Positions 1 to 5,760 of a stretch of DNA of 6,381 nt are shown piece by piece. Within the stretch, counting starts at the first letter, position 1; every line of letters starts with the position of its first letter. Source of the stretch: Actinomycetes bacterium (GTDB lineage: Bacteria; Actinomycetota; Actinomycetes; JAJYSQ01). Made by a program: the position numbers and the translations under genes. The stretch is taken from NCBI GenBank assembly GCA_021793495.1, contig JAJYSQ010000109.1, forward strand, positions 1 to 6,381, given 5' to 3'. A model generated the notes under the pieces. The model was not told the origin of the DNA. It worked only from the letters and a program-made list of their open reading frames with translations, and made no database searches.

Positions 1-325
1 GGCTGCGAAGCCGTGCCGGCACGCCACGCACGAGCGCCATCCACGGGGCGCCAGCGAGCACCAGCGGCGGCACGGCCACCATGAGTGCGAGCTGGCTGAC
101 GGTGGTCGCGGTGAACGACCCGCCGGCCACCGCCTCCCACCGTCCACTCAGGACGACCACGGCGATGGTCCAGGCCGTCACCGTGGCGAACAGCCGCCCG
201 CGACGGACGGTGCGCGGGTGGCCATGCCGGCGCGCCAGGCGGCTCAGGGTGAGGTAACCCACCACGTACGGCACCGCCAGCACCACCAGCGCCGCGGTCA
301 CCGCGCCGGCTGGCCAGCTGCTCAT
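1..325 (-). CDS. ctaG: caa3_CtaG-type cytochrome c oxidase assembly factor, 3' end cut by the window edge
   Basis: This frame stays open for 108 codons from an ATG at 325 to the left window edge, so only the N-terminal part is seen. The ATG overlaps the TGA of subunit III as ATGA, and the local Shine-Dalgarno sequence is weak (GGGTG), which fits translational coupling. The product is hydrophobic, with helices near residues 7-29, 45-60 and 74-94. The stretch LALMVAVPPLVLAGAP followed by LVRGVP (residues 79-103) matches the hallmark region of the caa3_CtaG family, multi-helix membrane proteins linked to assembly of CuA/CuB-type oxidases. That family usually has a His-x3-His pair (HMxQH) just before this stretch; here the positions are Thr74 and Gln78. 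The family call rests on remembered consensus and operon position. The role, probably copper handling during oxidase assembly, is inferred. Confidence 0.8.
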   Translation of the reverse strand, partial: MSSWPAGAVTAALVVLAVPYVVGYLTLSRLARRHGHPRTVRRGRLFATVTAWTIAVVVLSGRWEAVAGGSFTATTVSQLALMVAVPPLVLAGAPWMALVRGVPARLRS

Positions 326-1029
326 GACACCCAGTAGAAGAGGACGAACACCCCGACGAGGACGATGGCCATGAAGCCGGCGAACAGCGATGCGGCATCG
401 ACCGCCAGGCGGAACGCCATGACCTCGGAGCTGTCAGCGGCGTCCCCCCCTGGAGACAGCACGCCGCGCAGCCGGATCGAGCGCGCCAGCACGGTCTCGA
501 TCTGGTAGAGCTCGATCAGCAGCATGCCGATCGTGACCACCTCGGTGCCGACGAAGACGCTCGCGTACCCGCTGTCCCCCGGGGCGAACGGCAGTCTGCT
601 CAGCTGCCAGATCGACAGCCCCACGGTCAACGCGAGCACCCCCGTGGTGATGGCACTGGCTACCCCCCAGTCGAGCACCCCCCGGCGTCCCGCTCGCAAC
701 CGGCGGGTCGCCCAGACGAACAGCAGGCTGCTCGTCACCCCGAGACCGAGCATGACCACGCTCAGCAGGATCGGAGGGTGCTGGCTTGGCTGGTGCCACA
801 GACCGTTGGAGTCCAACGACCGCAGGTAGAAGTACGAGAACACCAGCGCGCCGTACACGGTGGCTCCGATGGCCACGAACATCCGGGACGCTGCCCAGGA
901 CGCATTGGCCTGGGCACGGGCATAGAACGCCTGCTCGTCGACCACGGCGTGCACCGGCACGTCCTGGACACTCGTCGGAGTCGCCGCAGCGGCACCGGAC
1001 CTGCCGTCACTGACCGAGTGCTCAGCCAT
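322..1029 (-). CDS. ctaE: Cytochrome c oxidase subunit III, divergent
   Basis: This 235-residue membrane protein has five predicted helices (about 47-69, 86-107, 119-141, 155-183 and 211-233), the count of the short bacterial form of subunit III rather than the seven-helix form. The segment GALVFSYFYLRS (residues 60-71) followed by a Trp resembles the subunit III signature helix. The fourth helix aligns with the usual HGxHV helix but has no His there, reading EVVTIGMLLIELY. The C-terminal WHFVDxxW-like motif is also not evident. The start ATG at 1027-1029 has a strong GAGGAGG at 1036-1042, 6 nt upstream, and overlaps the end of ctaD by 8 bp. Subunit III carries no redox centre; it stabilises subunit I and supports proton uptake in the family. 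Order and size make the identification firm despite divergence. Confidence 0.9.
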   Translation of the reverse strand: MAEHSVSDGRSGAAAATPTSVQDVPVHAVVDEQAFYARAQANASWAASRMFVAIGATVYGALVFSYFYLRSLDSNGLWHQPSQHPPILLSVVMLGLGVTSSLLFVWATRRLRAGRRGVLDWGVASAITTGVLALTVGLSIWQLSRLPFAPGDSGYASVFVGTEVVTIGMLLIELYQIETVLARSIRLRGVLSPGGDAADSSEVMAFRLAVDAASLFAGFMAIVLVGVFVLFYWVS

Positions 1030-3001
1030 GCTGGTCCTCCTCGCGGACAGGATCGGACAGTGCAGGCCCGCAGCCGACGCCCACCGGCTCGGGCACGACC
1101 GCCACCGGTGGCCGGTCCGGGACCCCGTAGTCGTACGGGCTGGACAACACGACCGGCACTCGGTCGAAGTTCTCCAGCGGCGTCGGGTAGGGGATCGTCC
1201 ACTCGAGTCCCAGGGAGTGCCACGGGTTCATCGAGGACGGCCGGTTCTTGATCGCGGTGGTCCAGACGATGTTCCACAGGAAGATCAGCAGCGAGACTCC
1301 CAGCAGGTAGGCCGAGATCGTGGCCCAGTCGTTCAGACCCTGCAGGCGGTGCTGGTACTCGAACACCCGTCGGGGCTGACCGAGCAGGCCGACGGCGAAC
1401 AGCGGCAGGAACGTGGAGTTGAAGAAGACGATCATGGTCCAGAAGTGCCACGTGCCAATCTTCTCGCTGAGCTGCAGGCCAGTGAAACGCGGGAACCAGT
1501 AGTACACCCCGGCGAAGAAGCCGAACATGTACCCACCCATGATCGTGTAATGGAAATGGGCGAGGACGAAGAACGAGCCGTGCAGGGTGGTGTCCGCCGG
1601 GACGTCCGAGATGAACACCCCGGTGATCCCGCCGAGCAGGAAGTTGAACAGCAGCCCGAGGCAGAACAGCATCGGTACGGTGATCCGGATCTTCGCCCGC
1701 CACAGGGTGCCGATGGCCCCCAGGTAGACGATCCCGGTCGGCACCGAGATCAGCTCGGTGGTCAGCATCACGACCGGTCGCATGTCCGGGTTCATCCCGC
1801 TCATGAACAGGTGGTGCTGCCAGACGAAGAAGCTCAGCACGCCGACGCCGATCAGCCCGGCGACCACCGTCCGGTAGCCGAACGCGGGCTTGCGGGCGAA
1901 GACGGGCAACAGCTCCGCGAGGATCCCGAAGCTCGGCAGCGCCAGCAGGTAGACCTCGGGGTGCCCGAAGAACCAGAAGAGGTTCTCCCACAGGTAGGGG
2001 CTGCCGCCATGCTGCCAGGTGAAGAAGGCCGTCTGCCAGGTCCGGTCCATGAGCATCAGGTAGAGCCCGGCGAACAGCACCGGGACCGCCAGCACCATGA
2101 TGCTCGCGGTGGACAGCATGGCCCACACGAAGATCGGCAGGCGTCCGAACGTCATCCCCGGAGCTCGGTGGCTGATGATGGTGGCGGCCATGTTGACCGC
2201 CCCGAACAGCAGCGACAGGGCCATCAACCCGAAGGACACGAGGTAGGAGTCCATGCCCTGGGTCGCCTGCACCGCCAACGGGGCGTACCCGGTCCACCCG
2301 GTCGGGAAGCCGCCGATGAGCAATCCGGACAGCAGGACCACGAAAGCCGCAGGCGTCAGCCACAGGGACAGCGCCTCGAGCCGGGGGAACGCGACGCGCT
2401 TGCTGCCGATCATCAGCGGCACGAGGTAGTTGCCGAACGGCCCGATGATGGCCGAGGTCATCATCATCATCATCATGGTGCCGTGCATGCCGACGAGCTC
2501 GATGTAGGCGTCGGGTGTGATCACATGGCTGGTGGGTGACAGCAGCTCGGTCCGGAACAACAGGGCGAACAACCCACCCACCATGAAGTAGAGGATCATG
2601 GCGACGAGGTACTGCGCGCCGACCACCTTGTGGTCGAGGGTGTACCGGAAGAACTTCCCGAGCCCCGGCTGGGCCTCCTCGGGCGCCGGTGGTTGCCGGC
2701 CGACGAGCTTGGCCAGCGGGTAGTTCACGATACCGAGCCCAGCGAGGAAGCCGACGCTGCCGACGAGGTACCCCAGGACCAGCGAGACGTTGTTCTGGTC
2801 GCTGCCCTGGACCTGCTGCCAGTTGTGCGCGATGGCGTTGCCGGCCCAGTGACCGATCGCGTAGCCGATGACGGCGCCGACCAGCCCCCAGAGGACATTG
2901 GGGCGCAGCCAGTCGTTCCGGGTGCGTCGGGCCGCGGGCACACCGCCAGTGGCGAGCGTCCCTCCGTCGCCGGCCGGGCTCGAGGTGATGTCGAGTGCCA
3001 T
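1022..3001 (-). CDS. ctaD: Heme-copper oxidase subunit I (aa3-like, A-family) with atypical proton channels
   Basis: This 659-residue catalytic subunit reduces oxygen at a heme/CuB centre in the membrane. Heme ligands are H173 and H484 (low-spin) and H482 (high-spin). CuB ligands are H347 in GHPEVY and H396/H397, and Y351 is the cross-linked Tyr. E349 marks an A1-like site, and the propionate-binding Arg pair is present in QPRRVFEY. From H347 to H484 the spacing equals that of the Paracoccus enzyme, so key positions map without gaps. On that map the D-channel Asp is R202, the nearby Asn is E209, the K-channel Lys is V425, the K-channel Ser is A362 and the Mg-site Asp is G475. Two extra N-terminal helices (about 36-58 and 72-98) precede the usual helix I. 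The start has AGGAG at 3009-3013, 7 nt upstream. Subunit I is certain; proton pumping is not. Confidence 0.97.
   Translation of the reverse strand: MALDITSSPAGDGGTLATGGVPAARRTRNDWLRPNVLWGLVGAVIGYAIGHWAGNAIAHNWQQVQGSDQNNVSLVLGYLVGSVGFLAGLGIVNYPLAKLVGRQPPAPEEAQPGLGKFFRYTLDHKVVGAQYLVAMILYFMVGGLFALLFRTELLSPTSHVITPDAYIELVGMHGTMMMMMMTSAIIGPFGNYLVPLMIGSKRVAFPRLEALSLWLTPAAFVVLLSGLLIGGFPTGWTGYAPLAVQATQGMDSYLVSFGLMALSLLFGAVNMAATIISHRAPGMTFGRLPIFVWAMLSTASIMVLAVPVLFAGLYLMLMDRTWQTAFFTWQHGGSPYLWENLFWFFGHPEVYLLALPSFGILAELLPVFARKPAFGYRTVVAGLIGVGVLSFFVWQHHLFMSGMNPDMRPVVMLTTELISVPTGIVYLGAIGTLWRAKIRITVPMLFCLGLLFNFLLGGITGVFISDVPADTTLHGSFFVLAHFHYTIMGGYMFGFFAGVYYWFPRFTGLQLSEKIGTWHFWTMIVFFNSTFLPLFAVGLLGQPRRVFEYQHRLQGLNDWATISAYLLGVSLLIFLWNIVWTTAIKNRPSSMNPWHSLGLEWTIPYPTPLENFDRVPVVLSSPYDYGVPDRPPVAVVPEPVGVGCGPALSDPVREEDQHG
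2459..2476. repeat. (CAT)6 trinucleotide run encoding six consecutive Met in CtaD
   Basis: Six perfect CAT units on the plus strand read as six ATG codons, M176-M181 of subunit I. They begin three residues after the low-spin heme ligand H173, in transmembrane helix II. Homologues usually have a mixed Met/Phe/hydrophobic stretch after the HG. A pure triplet repeat can gain or lose units in frame. Confidence 0.9.
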
Positions 3002-3029
3002 TCAAGGACTCCTGGATTCGTCGGGGCCG

Positions 3030-3986
3030 TCAGGATCCGGCAGGCGAGGTCACGCTGCTGGGGAAAGGCGAAGGGGTGGCTGTGGCGTTGGGCTCCTGCC
3101 CCGATCCGTAGAACCCGCCACCGGCTCCCGGGTTGTAGTAGGGCGCGGCTGGAGGCAGCAAGGGCAGGTCAGGGGCGTGGCGCTGCTGCTCCTTGGTCAG
3201 CCACTGGGAGAACGCCCCGGCGCTGACCACGTACCCGTTGTTGTACATGGCGCCATGCCAGATCCCGCACAGCTCGGAGCAGCGCACCTCGAATCGTCCG
3301 AGCTGGGTCGGGGTGGTGAACGCCACGTTGTCGACGCCCGGGTTGGCGTCTGCCTTCACTCCCAGCTGGTAGGCCCAGAAGCCGTGGATCACGTCCAGGC
3401 TCGTGACGTGGAACACGACCGGGCGGTCCACGGGAAGGTAGAGCTGGGTGGTCTCGAACCCTCCGGCGTTCAGGTAGCGGTAGGTGAACTGCCACTGCTG
3501 GGCGATCACCTGGACTTCCAGCGGCTTGGTCGAGGAAGAGGACACCGGGCTCCAGATGGGGTTCGGCCCCTCTCCCGCCCCGGCACCGGCCGGGTGGATC
3601 AGCTCGTACGTCCCGAATCCGAACAGGAACAGCACGAGAGCGGTGGTGATCCCCAGCCAGCCGGCCTGGAAGACCCGGTTGCCCCGGATGGGCGGACCGT
3701 CCTCGATCACGCCACGCTGCGAACGGAAGAAGATGAGCGCGTACCCGAAGTAGGTCCAGATGAACAGCACGACGGGGGTCGCGATGGCGGTGAGCACCTT
3801 CATGTCGAACTGCTGGCTGGCCGCGCTGTCGCTCATGCCCCCCGGTGGCAGGTGCGGGCCGAGGACGAGGTACACCAGGGGGGTGGCGATCGCCGACAAG
3901 ACGAGCCATACCAGGAAGATCCGTAGCGCGTGCCGGGGCTGGGCCGCCGTGGCGTGCGTGGGCGAAGGAGGCGTTGAGCCGCTCAT
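3030..3986 (-). CDS. ctaC: Cytochrome c oxidase subunit II with CuA domain
   Basis: This 318-residue protein is membrane-anchored with an extracytoplasmic cupredoxin domain that takes electrons from a donor such as cytochrome c. The CuA ligand set is complete: H201 in DVIHGFW, then C236, E238, C240, H244 and M247 in CSELCGIWHGAM. There are three hydrophobic segments (about 20-42, 64-87, 106-129). The last two match the normal helix pair; the first is extra, and no lipobox Cys is visible. The Glu that usually lies at the K-channel mouth is Q107. The Q-W-x-W electron-entry motif reads Q-W-Q-F, with F167. A Pro/Gly/Ser-rich tail (about 271-318) follows, with no heme c CxxCH. The ATG is 1 bp after the upstream stop (TGAGATG), with AAGGTGG at 3996-4002. 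The gap to ctaD is 28 bp. Confidence 0.96.
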   Translation of the reverse strand: MSGSTPPSPTHATAAQPRHALRIFLVWLVLSAIATPLVYLVLGPHLPPGGMSDSAASQQFDMKVLTAIATPVVLFIWTYFGYALIFFRSQRGVIEDGPPIRGNRVFQAGWLGITTALVLFLFGFGTYELIHPAGAGAGEGPNPIWSPVSSSSTKPLEVQVIAQQWQFTYRYLNAGGFETTQLYLPVDRPVVFHVTSLDVIHGFWAYQLGVKADANPGVDNVAFTTPTQLGRFEVRCSELCGIWHGAMYNNGYVVSAGAFSQWLTKEQQRHAPDLPLLPPAAPYYNPGAGGGFYGSGQEPNATATPSPFPSSVTSPAGS

Positions 3987-3987
3987 C

Positions 3988-4668
3988 TCAGGCCACCACC
4001 TTCAGGAATCCACCCATGAACCCCAGGGTCTGCATCGGGCCTCCGTTGCCGTACAGGAAGGCGGTGCCGCAGGGAACGAAGCACTGCCAGTGGTAGAGCC
4101 CCGCCGCTCCCGTGCGGAACTCGAACTGGATCGTGTTGTGCGAGTAGTTCGTGGTGCAGGGGGCAGCCGAGCACGGGTTCTTCGCCGTGTCGGGCACGCC
4201 CTCGAGAGGGACGCTGACTCCGAGGGCCGGGATGGTGAACGTGTGCCCGATTCCGGGCGCGTCGTTCTTCGGGGTGAGCGCGTCGACGGTCTGACCGTTG
4301 ACCGTGATGGTCCCGCCCACCGTCCCCTGCGGCTGGTTCATCAGTGGGTTGCGCAGGTCGCTGCCGGTGTCGTACTGCAAGATCGTGACGTGCACCAGAG
4401 CGTGTGCCGGTACCTGGAGCATGGTCGTGTGCACCCACTGGCCGTCCGGCCGCTGGATCAGGTAGCTCACCCAGTCGGGGTGCGGGCCGCTGCCGAGCGC
4501 GGGCACCGTCTGCATCGTGAGAGAAGCCTCGGCACCGTTGCTGGTCGAGGACGTCGTGGCGGCGATCGCCGCAGGGTAGCGGCTGAGCTTCAGCCCACCC
4601 CAGATGAACAGTGTCGCTGCGATCAAGAACGGAATGATGATCGCCAGCAGTCGTCCTGGCTTGGACAT
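3988..4668 (-). CDS. Membrane-anchored cupredoxin-like protein with C-x3-C motif, oxidase-associated
   Basis: This 226-residue protein has one N-terminal helix (about 7-25) that probably acts as an uncleaved anchor, a Ser/Thr-rich linker, and an exported beta-rich domain. The C-terminus reads YHWQCFVPCG (residues 192-201), giving C196-x3-C200 with H193 just before, then M212 and M218. H142 in GHTFTIPALG sits where cupredoxins often place the first His ligand. The Cys spacing equals that of CuA, but the His and Met expected 4 and 7 residues after the second Cys are Phe and Gly. C166 and C171 could form a disulfide. GGAGGAG at 4674-4680 lies 5 nt before the ATG. The next gene, ctaC, starts 1 bp after the stop, so an oxidase role is likely: a CuA metallochaperone, an electron carrier or an accessory subunit. 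The copper fold is inferred from motif pattern; the precise function is unknown. Confidence 0.82.
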   Translation of the reverse strand: MSKPGRLLAIIIPFLIAATLFIWGGLKLSRYPAAIAATTSSTSNGAEASLTMQTVPALGSGPHPDWVSYLIQRPDGQWVHTTMLQVPAHALVHVTILQYDTGSDLRNPLMNQPQGTVGGTITVNGQTVDALTPKNDAPGIGHTFTIPALGVSVPLEGVPDTAKNPCSAAPCTTNYSHNTIQFEFRTGAAGLYHWQCFVPCGTAFLYGNGGPMQTLGFMGGFLKVVA

Positions 4669-4777: not shown

Positions 4778-5725
4778 TCATCGCAGCCACCGACCGGCGA
4801 GCACGTCCACGGCGAGGGCGACGAACAGCAAGGTCAGGTAGCTGATGGATCGGTGGAACAACCGCATCGCGGCCTTGCGGTCCAGCCCGGTGCGCGCGGT
4901 CTGCCGGTGCAGTCCGAGCGCACCCTGCAGGAACCAGGCTCCCAGCGTGGTCGCGGCCACCGGGTAGAGCCATCCGGTCCCGGCCACCGGCCACAGCAGC
5001 AGCGAGACAGCCACCGTGGCGACGGTGTACCCGGCCATGGCCCGGGTCACGGTGCGGTCGCTGGCGACCACCGGGAGCATCGGTACTCCGGCCCGCGCGT
5101 AGTCCTCGCGGAAGCGCAGGGCCAGCGCCCAGAAGTGCGGCGGTGTCCAGAAGAACACGATGGCGAACAAGATCACCGGGGCGAGACTGATCCGCCCGGT
5201 CACGGCCGCCCACCCGACCAGGACGGGCGCGCACCCGGCGGCTCCACCCCACACGATGTTCTGCGAGGTGCGGCGCTTGAGTCCCAGGGTGTACACGAGG
5301 ACGTAGAAGGCGATGGCGGCGGTAGCCAGCGCGGCGGCCAGCAGGTTGGCCCCCCACGACAGCGTCCCGGTGGCGAGCACGGCGAGCACGGCGCCGAAGA
5401 CCAGTGCGCGGTTGGGCGGCACGGCCGCGGTGACGAGCGGCCGGTTCGCGGTCCGGTTCATCACCGAGTCGATGTCCCGGTCGACATAGCAGTTCAGGCT
5501 GTTCGCGCTGCCTGCCGCGAGGCTGCCGCCCACCAGGGTCACGGTCAGCAGCCGCCATCCGGGCCACCCGTGCGCGGCCAGGACCATGCTCGGCACGGTC
5601 GTGACCAGGAGCAGCTCGATGATCCGCGGCTTGGTCAGCCCGACATAGGCGCGGATCGTGGTGACAGCGCGCCTCGGGGCGCTGCGGGGGGCCGGTGAGA
5701 GCTCCACCAGCTCGACTGTCGCCAT
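4778..5725 (-). CDS. ctaB: Protoheme IX farnesyltransferase (heme O synthase)
   Basis: This UbiA-family membrane prenyltransferase adds a farnesyl group to the heme B vinyl, giving heme O, the precursor of heme A. From the ATG it is 315 residues, close to the normal family length, with many hydrophobic helices. The first Asp-rich motif is N78-x3-D82-x3-D86 (NCYVDRDID), which binds the prenyl diphosphate through Mg2+. [17 protein letters not shown] (145-161), [13 protein letters not shown] (191-203) and [13 protein letters not shown] (208-220) are further family signatures. I chose the ATG at 5725 because AGGAAGG lies 5 nt upstream; an in-frame GTG at 5758 would add 11 residues and has only a weaker GGTGG. 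A 109-bp gap separates it from the cupredoxin gene, so it may be co-transcribed or separately expressed. No heme A synthase gene is in view. Confidence 0.96.
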
Positions 5726-5730
5726 GTCGT

Positions 5731-5737
5731 CCTTCCT
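5731..5737 (-). promoter_or_regulatory. Ribosome binding site that decides the ctaB start
   Basis: The minus strand reads AGGAAGG here, followed by five bases and then the ATG at 5725. This is a better-spaced and stronger match to the 16S rRNA tail than anything before the in-frame GTG at 5758. It therefore supports the shorter protein. Confidence 0.7.
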
Positions 5738-5760
5738 GCCGAGACCGTCGGTGACCACGC

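What the first reader, a model, noticed from the sequence alone, without database searches (positions are those of the whole stretch)
1577..3668. Oxidase core without a recognisable K channel
Counting from the GHPEVY site (H347, E349, Y351) to HFHY (H482, H484), CtaD keeps the exact residue spacing of the Paracoccus enzyme, so positions map directly. The K-channel Lys (Paracoccus K354, in PTGIK) is V425 at 1727-1729. The channel Ser (S291) is A362 at 1916-1918. In subunit II the Glu at the channel mouth (E78) is Q107 at 3666-3668. Three matched losses in two genes suggest a real lineage trait rather than sequencing error. The active-site Tyr and all CuB His remain, so reductive catalysis looks intact while proton delivery must use another path.
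Basis: partly seen in the sequence, partly recalled or inferred. Interest (0 to 1): 0.78.

Follow-up and report, generated by a model that had tools for sequence, protein, structure and literature searches.

The report
Acidophile oxidase with rebuilt proton inlets
This operon encodes a respiratory oxygen-reducing enzyme that lacks the lysine and the partner glutamate of the standard K proton channel, carries a glutamate elsewhere in the same helix that likely does part of their job, and has Arg and Glu in place of the Asp and Asn of its second proton inlet; named relatives with the same changes include acid-loving iron-oxidising bacteria, so nature has apparently re-plumbed an enzyme usually thought to need both channels.

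Summary
All three residues are as stated: V425 at the K-channel Lys site, A362 at the Ser site, CtaC Q107 at the mouth Glu site. The missing Lys is a clade trait (0 Lys in the 200 nearest relatives); the missing Ser is not (71 of 200 keep it). More was missed. All 200 carry Glu416 and Ser419 on helix VIII. Across 79 COX1 rows, Glu416 (32 rows) and the Lys (45 rows) never co-occur; 2 rows have neither. One clade for the Glu type is rejected (AU p 0.003), so the exchange happened at least twice. The CtaC Glu stands in 27 of 27 readable Lys rows and in 0 of 32 readable Lys-less rows, though 4 of 80 clade loci have it. The window's clade also has Arg/Lys plus Glu for the D-inlet Asp132 and Asn139 (198 of 200). 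Gene order cup-ctaC-ctaD-ctaE matches the rus operon core of iron oxidisers. Likely mechanism: protons enter by a shifted D inlet and Glu416-Ser419 relays them at the active-site Tyr, with weak or no pumping. Anatomy shown, mechanism inferred.

The parts
1022..3001 (-). ctaD, oxidase subunit I, 659 aa, with two extra N-terminal transmembrane helices (residues 36-58 and 71-89 of the model)
   Evidence: Pfam COX1 430 bits
1727..1729 (-). V425, site of the K-channel Lys (Pd K354, Rs K362); I 182, L 12, V 6 of 200
1754..1756 (-). E416 on helix VIII (Rs position 353), 200 of 200
1745..1747 (-). S419 on helix VIII (Rs position 356), 200 of 200
1736..1738 (-). T422 (Rs T359, Pd T351), upper K-channel Thr, 200 of 200
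1916..1918 (-). A362, site of the channel Ser (Pd S291); variable in the clade
2396..2398 (-). R202, site of the D-channel Asp (Rs D132); R 185, K 13, G 1, W 1 of 200
2375..2377 (-). E209, site of the D-channel Asn (Rs N139); 200 of 200
1955..1957 (-). E349 (Rs E286, Pd E278), end of the D channel, 199 of 200 (Asp in one)
1949..1951 (-). Y351 active-site Tyr, 200 of 200
1577..1579 (-). G475, site of the Asp of the LHD motif; Gly in 200 of 200
1817..1819 (-). Q395, next to the CuB His pair (Ala in 31 of 33 Lys rows); Gln in 199 of 200
3030..3986 (-). ctaC, subunit II with intact CuA ligands
3666..3668 (-). Q107 of CtaC, site of the K-channel mouth Glu (Pd E78)
3988..4668 (-). cup, cupredoxin-like protein with an N-terminal hydrophobic stretch, 226 aa, CxxPC motif; beside ctaC in 77 of 80 relatives' loci
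322..1029 (-). ctaE-like gene after ctaD (235 aa; no Pfam or NCBIfam match); beside ctaD in 77 of 80 loci
4778..5758 (-). ctaB, haem O synthase

Best explanation
This is a haem-copper oxidase of the A-family fold, predicted to reduce oxygen, that lacks the K-channel lysine and its subunit II mouth glutamate and carries Arg and Glu in place of the D-inlet Asp and Asn, and it likely takes up its protons through that shifted D inlet, with Glu416-Ser419-Thr422 on helix VIII predicted to act as an internal proton relay at the active-site tyrosine in place of the lysine. Shown: the residues, their conservation, the mutual exclusion of Lys and Glu416 in two separate places of the tree, and the linked absence of the subunit II Glu. 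Inferred: that Glu416 carries protons, that E209 is the inlet acid feeding E349, that pumping is weak or absent (an acid at this Asn site abolishes pumping in laboratory mutants of ordinary enzymes), and that the rebuild suits cells facing strong outside acid.
For: 0 Lys, and E416, S419, T422, Y351 in 200 of 200 relatives. In 79 COX1 rows the combinations are 43 Lys without Glu or Ser, 32 Glu with Ser and no Lys, 2 Lys with Ser, 2 with none of the three (Gln at the Lys site). AU test rejects one Glu clade, p 0.003. CtaC mouth Glu in 27 of 27 readable Lys rows, none in 30 of 30 readable Glu rows and 2 of 2 Gln rows. Asp132/Asn139 pair in 48 of 48 rows outside the window's clade and 12 of 12 plasmid oxidases, against R/K with Glu in 198 of 200 clade rows. 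E349 in 199 of 200. Published mutants: K319M (bovine number) essentially blocks haem a3 reduction, and N98D (the Asn139 site) keeps oxygen reduction but loses pumping (PMC12901375 and PMC10194837, passages).
Against: No member of the clade was measured here. The D-channel Ser at Rs 201 is M, L, I, V or A in 200 of 200 clade rows against Ser in 28 of 33 Lys rows, so a continuous wire from E209 to E349 is not assured. No coordinates were available to scripts, so the distance from Glu416 to Tyr351 or CuB was not measured. One Lys-less lineage (L140, L141) has Gln and no Glu416, so the Glu is not always present. Four clade loci (L055, L058, L064, L076) carry the CtaC Glu without the Lys. Ser419 occurs in two Lys-bearing oxidases (Nostoc, Rhizobium cyoB). 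The direction of the older Lys/Glu exchange is not settled by the unrooted tree.
Confidence: 0.42

Rival explanations
1. Protons for water formation come from the outside face, as in cytochrome c-type NO reductase, through the altered haem-propionate region (G475) and Glu416, so the enzyme neither pumps nor separates charge.
For: Both inside inlets are altered. Profile alignment puts E416 on the NorB helix VIII Glu (Glu280 of 3o0r) and NorB has THG where the clade has LHG. That Glu is critical for activity and proton uptake in cNOR, which takes protons from outside (PMC3431322, passages). Outside acid would make such uptake cheap (inference).
Against: Per-residue confidence of the profile alignment was low and it needs a two-residue gap. 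The nested Glu lineage and L091-L093 keep Asp at the G475 site. E349 stands in 199 of 200, which is hard to explain without a D route. Halobaculum L155 has Gly there with a normal Lys.
Confidence: 0.18
2. The D route alone carries every proton; Glu416 and Ser419 are structural (for instance holding the haem a3 side chain or a water) and have no part in proton transfer.
For: E349 conserved. The third Lys-less lineage does without the Glu.
Against: Glu416 is absent from 45 of 45 Lys rows and present in 32 of 34 Lys-less rows, in two separate parts of the tree, which points to replacement rather than packing.
Confidence: 0.25
3. It is an NO reductase of the eNOR, sNOR or related type rather than an oxygen reductase.
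For: Altered channels and a Glu in helix VIII; putative eNOR genes are often annotated as oxidases (PMC8756737, passages).
Against: The active-site Tyr stands in 200 of 200; eNOR has Gln there, sNOR Asn, gNOR Asp (PMC8756737 Table A4). The NOR motif H-X-Arom-X-E is absent (HPEVY).
Confidence: 0.04
4. A decaying or mis-assembled paralogue: the genome has a second, ordinary Lys-bearing oxidase (L001), so this one drifts.
For: L001 on contig C163 has Lys, Ser, Asp, Asn and the CtaC Glu.
Against: Same substitutions in 128 clusters at 90% identity, 111 of 502 core columns invariant in 200 rows, cup beside ctaC and ctaE beside ctaD in 77 of 80 loci each.
Confidence: 0.02

Closest known systems
'2TM' COX1 clade of iron-oxidising bacteria (Degli Esposti et al. 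2021, PMC8239418; abstract, sections 11 and 12 and passages seen)
   Same: Two extra N-terminal helices, acidophile and iron-oxidiser setting; the paper reports K- and D-channel variants and seven K-channel losses under one of two hypotheses for archaeal family A
   Different: Whether its Supplementary Figure 7 shows the Glu416/Ser419 state or the Arg/Glu inlet could not be read; no Acidithiobacillus CoxA sequence was obtained here
rus operon oxidase of Acidithiobacillus, Acidiferrobacter and Acidihalobacter (PMC10654088, passages seen)
   Same: Gene order cup-coxB-coxA-coxC
   Different: cyc2 and cyc1 precede cup there; a CXXCH scan of frames of 110 aa or more found none in 67 of 80 loci and only single motifs in 13; cyc2 and cyc1 were not searched by homology
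A1-type aa3 oxidase of Paracoccus and R. sphaeroides
   Same: Fold (1.3 A over 492 residues), Tyr, CuB and haem His, Glu286
   Different: No K-channel Lys or mouth Glu, Arg/Lys and Glu for the D-channel Asp and Asn, LHG for LHD
Thermus ba3 (B family)
   Same: Arg at the Asp132 site (R100, PMC12901375 Table 2)
   Different: ba3 has Met at the Asn139 site, Ile at the Glu286 site and Thr at the Lys site; here Glu, Glu and I, L or V (Thr in L089)
cNOR NorB
   Same: Glu in helix VIII after the His pair, Gly in the THG/LHG motif
   Different: Tyr present, no FeB-ligand Glu; the Glu is two residues nearer to the His pair

Membership tests
A-type haem-copper oxygen reductase (Sousa et al. 2011, PMC3084760) | Tyr-I, CuB His and haem His of subunit I | tested here: met
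   200 of 200
A-type haem-copper oxygen reductase (Sousa et al. 2011, PMC3084760) | K channel Lys354, Thr351, Ser291 | tested here: not met
   Lys 0 of 200, Thr 200 of 200, Ser 71 of 200 (Ala in the window)
A1 type (PMC3084760) | D channel with Asp124, Asn131, Ser193, Glu278 among others | tested here: not met
   Asp 0 of 200; Asn131 site Glu 200 of 200; Ser193 site never Ser; Glu278 199 of 200. So: A fold and A kinship, but not the published A1 channel set
'2TM' COX1 (PMC8239418) | two extra N-terminal transmembrane helices | tested here: met
   model helices 36-58 and 71-89
'2TM' COX1 (PMC8239418) | branches with Acidithiobacillus COX1 | not tested
   no Acidithiobacillus COX1 obtained
rus-type operon | cup-coxB-coxA-coxC order | tested here: met
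   window; cup beside ctaC in 77 of 80 loci, ctaC beside ctaD in 79, ctaE-like in 77. The ctaE-like gene is named by position only
AcoP cupredoxin | sequence relation to AcoP | tested here: inconclusive
   AcoP 7z3g is the best-scoring cupredoxin but E 0.36
AcoP cupredoxin | six residues between the Cys and His copper ligands (C159, H166; PMC4059628) | tested here: not met
   Cys196-x3-Cys200, no conserved His in the loop, Met212
eNOR | Gln in place of the active-site Tyr (PMC8756737) | tested here: not met
   Tyr 200 of 200
cNOR/qNOR | H-X-Arom-X-E and H-H-X-Arom-Arom-X17-E motifs (PMC3084760) | tested here: not met
   HPEVY; Glu at first His +20 instead of +22
B type | alternative K channel with Thr at the Lys site (PMC12901375 Table 2) | tested here: not met
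   I, L or V in 200 of 200; Thr in one clade member outside them, L089

The most novel reading that the evidence does not exclude
An oxygen reductase that takes its chemical protons from the acid outside, as NO reductases do, and pumps none: iron oxidisers at low pH would then run respiration on the outside proton pool, with Glu416 the last acid before the copper site. This would break the rule that A-family oxidases separate charge.
Probability: 0.12. Interest if true: 0.88.

Novelty: new variant of a known kind. Interest (0 to 1): 0.56.

Why it matters
The K channel has been studied largely with laboratory mutants in which the Lys change blocks the reductive phase. Here nature offers enzymes in which Lys and a Glu-Ser pair in the same helix replace each other in at least two separate lineages, and a third lineage with neither, each time with the partner Glu in another gene missing as well. 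That gives ready-made material to test the need for the Lys, the role of a second buried acid, and the link between the D inlet and pumping. It also warns that annotation as an aa3 oxidase does not imply proton pumping, which matters for energy budgets of acidophilic iron oxidisers.

Tried and rejected
NO reductase identity: rejected on the Tyr. Pseudogene or sequencing error: rejected on conservation. A single clade for the Glu type: rejected, AU p 0.003, under one model, a quick tree, and a group named after an earlier tree had been seen. Side-chain geometry: no coordinates of the model are laid for scripts, so distances were not measured. Cytochrome c genes nearby: a CXXCH scan found single-motif frames in 13 of 80 loci and none in 67, a crude test. 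NorB comparison: hhalign E 6.4e-07, probability 85.5, but per-residue confidence low. Structure searches listed A-fold oxidases in the rows shown; absence of NORs there is not evidence. Literature: ten searches of open-licence papers and the passages opened showed no description of the Glu416/Ser419 exchange or of the Arg/Glu inlet in nature; Degli Esposti 2020, the supplement of PMC8239418 and the 2024 PNAS survey of NO reductases (not held) were not read, so a prior description there is possible. A laboratory double mutant that moves the inlet acid from Asp132 to the Asn139 site and regains pumping is recalled (Branden et al. 2006) and was not read; if it applies, pumping may be kept. Recalled, from no call: the letters Met and Ala at R. 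sphaeroides 353 and 356, and the R. sphaeroides number E101 of the mouth Glu.
Full report
What is there. The minus strand carries, in order, ctaB (4778-5758), a 226-residue cupredoxin-like gene here called cup (3988-4668), ctaC (3030-3986), ctaD (1022-3001), a ctaE-like gene (322-1029; named by position, no Pfam or NCBIfam match) and a frame running off the window (2-325) that I take for ctaG from recall; a histidine kinase fragment lies beyond ctaB. CtaC has all CuA ligands. CtaD has 659 residues. Its model (pLDDT 87.1) has two helices, 36-58 and 71-89, before the usual core, and the core superposes on R. sphaeroides subunit I at 1.3 A over 492 residues. The window lies in a 2.3 Mb draft genome (81% complete) that also holds an ordinary oxidase with the Lys, L001.

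Check of the finding. I widened the sample to the window, 80 loci of genome contigs (80 kept of 141) and 119 listed proteins (120 listed of 7959 hits, one being the window). In these 200 rows the Lys column is I 182, L 12, V 6. The Ser column is mixed, with Ser in 71, so A362 is not a shared loss. In CtaC of 80 rows (window and 79 loci) the Glu column is Q 70, S 5, E 4, A 1; the four with Glu are L055, L058, L064 and L076. One clade member outside the 200, L089, has Thr at the Lys site.

The helix VIII exchange. All 200 rows carry Glu416 and Ser419 (R. sphaeroides positions 353 and 356) and keep Thr422. To see whether this goes with the missing Lys I took 29 further COX1 loci across Actinomycetota (160 of 296 genomes had a match, 30 loci kept, one of them the window; read), then 22 of 30 loci from the class of one of those genomes, then 12 plasmid-borne oxidases of Cyanobacteriota, Halobacteria, Gemmatimonadota, Bacteroidota and Pseudomonadota, picked from the 60 rows listed. 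Of the 79 rows, 32 have Glu416, Ser419 and no Lys; 43 have Lys with neither; 2 have Lys with Ser; 2 have Gln at the Lys site with neither. Glu and Lys never occur together. On a tree built without the motif columns the Glu type falls in two places: one clade of 26 rows that holds the window, and a clade of 6 rows nested among Lys enzymes near ordinary actinobacterial aa3. Holding all 32 together is rejected (AU p 0.003). The tree is a quick one, the Vibrio and Spirosoma rows are long, and an unrooted tree does not say whether the window's clade lost the Lys or never had it; in the nested clade loss is the simpler reading.

The second gene. In the same rows the CtaC mouth Glu is present in 27 of 27 readable Lys rows and absent in 30 of 30 readable Glu rows and 2 of 2 Gln rows. 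Not counted: 2 Lys rows and 1 Glu row unreadable at the site, 4 Lys rows and 1 Glu row without a CtaC hit, and the 12 plasmid rows, whose CtaC was not examined. So the Lys and its partner Glu in another gene are missing together in all three Lys-less lineages. The four clade loci named above are the exception.

The D inlet. In R. sphaeroides numbering, Asp132 and Asn139 stand in 48 of 48 rows outside the window's clade, in 12 of 12 plasmid oxidases and in 120 of 120 proteins listed for the nearest sister group. In the window's clade they are Arg or Lys plus Glu in 198 of 200 rows, and Gly or Trp plus Glu in the other two. Thus the acid sits seven residues further along the chain. The Asp of the LHD motif is Gly in 200 of 200, in the sister rows L094, L097, L106 and L143 and in one Lys row, L155. 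Glu286 is kept in 199 of 200. The D-channel Ser at 201 is lost in all 200, which weakens the idea of an ordinary water wire. The sister group reads Glu, Ser and no Lys in 118 of 120; two were not resolved by the simple offset.

Mechanism. Reviews seen in passages state that the Lys mutation blocks haem a3 reduction and that an Asp at the Asn139 site leaves oxygen reduction normal but abolishes pumping (PMC10194837; PMC12901375). A natural enzyme with an acid at that site and no Lys should therefore need another acid near the active site and may pump poorly. Ser419 and Glu416 lie about one and two turns before Thr422 on the same helix as the missing Lys, and stand in for it in two lineages. I therefore commit to a shifted D inlet with Glu416 as internal relay. 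These steps are inferred. The chief rival is uptake from outside: the profile alignment places Glu416 on the NorB helix VIII Glu and NorB has THG where the clade has LHG, and cNOR takes protons from outside (PMC3431322); that alignment is of low per-residue confidence.

Setting. Named clade members include Acidithrix ferrooxidans (L041), Ferrithrix thermotolerans (L071), a Ferrimicrobium (L060) and Acidiferrimicrobium (L006), besides bog and palsa draft genomes and Trebonia. Acidimicrobium, Ferrimicrobium, Ferrithrix and Acidithrix are listed as acidophiles that respire iron, and Acidimicrobium and Ferrimicrobium cells show spectra dominated by a-type haem when fed iron (PMC5143472, passages). 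Whether the window's own host oxidises iron or lives in acid is unknown. The order cup-coxB-coxA-coxC is that of the rus operon (PMC10654088, passages); cup is beside ctaC in 77 of 80 loci.

Known or new. Family A members without the canonical K channel, and a two-extra-helix clade in iron oxidisers, are in print (PMC8239418). The residue-level exchange, its two places on the tree, the linked CtaC absence and the Arg/Glu inlet were not found in ten searches of open papers, but key supplements and subscription papers were not readable. I rate it a new variant of a known kind.

Noticed in passing
window 3988-4668: The cupredoxin-like protein has His142, Cys196-x3-Cys200, Met212 and Met218 in all 78 rows aligned and a second CxxxPC pair, but no conserved His in its copper loop: an odd, possibly CuA-like or disulfide-locked site with no Pfam or NCBIfam match. 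The sister rows L094, L097 and L106 lack the second pair.
   Followed up: partly
L140, L141: A third Lys-less lineage: Gln at the Lys site, no Glu416, and Val at the CtaC Glu site; how these enzymes take up protons is unexplained.
   Followed up: partly
L091, L092, L093: A2-like oxidases (Ala at the Glu286 site) that also lack Lys and carry Glu416 and Ser419.
   Followed up: no
L055, L058, L064, L076: Clade members that have the CtaC mouth Glu although the Lys is missing: regained or retained.
   Followed up: no
L005: Nearest tree neighbour of the window (70% of core columns) is labelled Acidobacteria; either gene transfer or a mislabelled draft genome.
   Followed up: no
window 322-1029: The ctaE-like protein matches neither Pfam nor NCBIfam although it sits where subunit III belongs.
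   Followed up: no
window residue M172 of CtaD: 96% of the clade have Glu directly before the haem ligand His173; the window has Met.
   Followed up: no
L155 554-2839 (Halobaculum): A 2286-base gene annotated only as DUF6789 family protein contains an oxidase subunit I with Gly in place of the LHD Asp but normal Lys, Asp and Asn.
   Followed up: no
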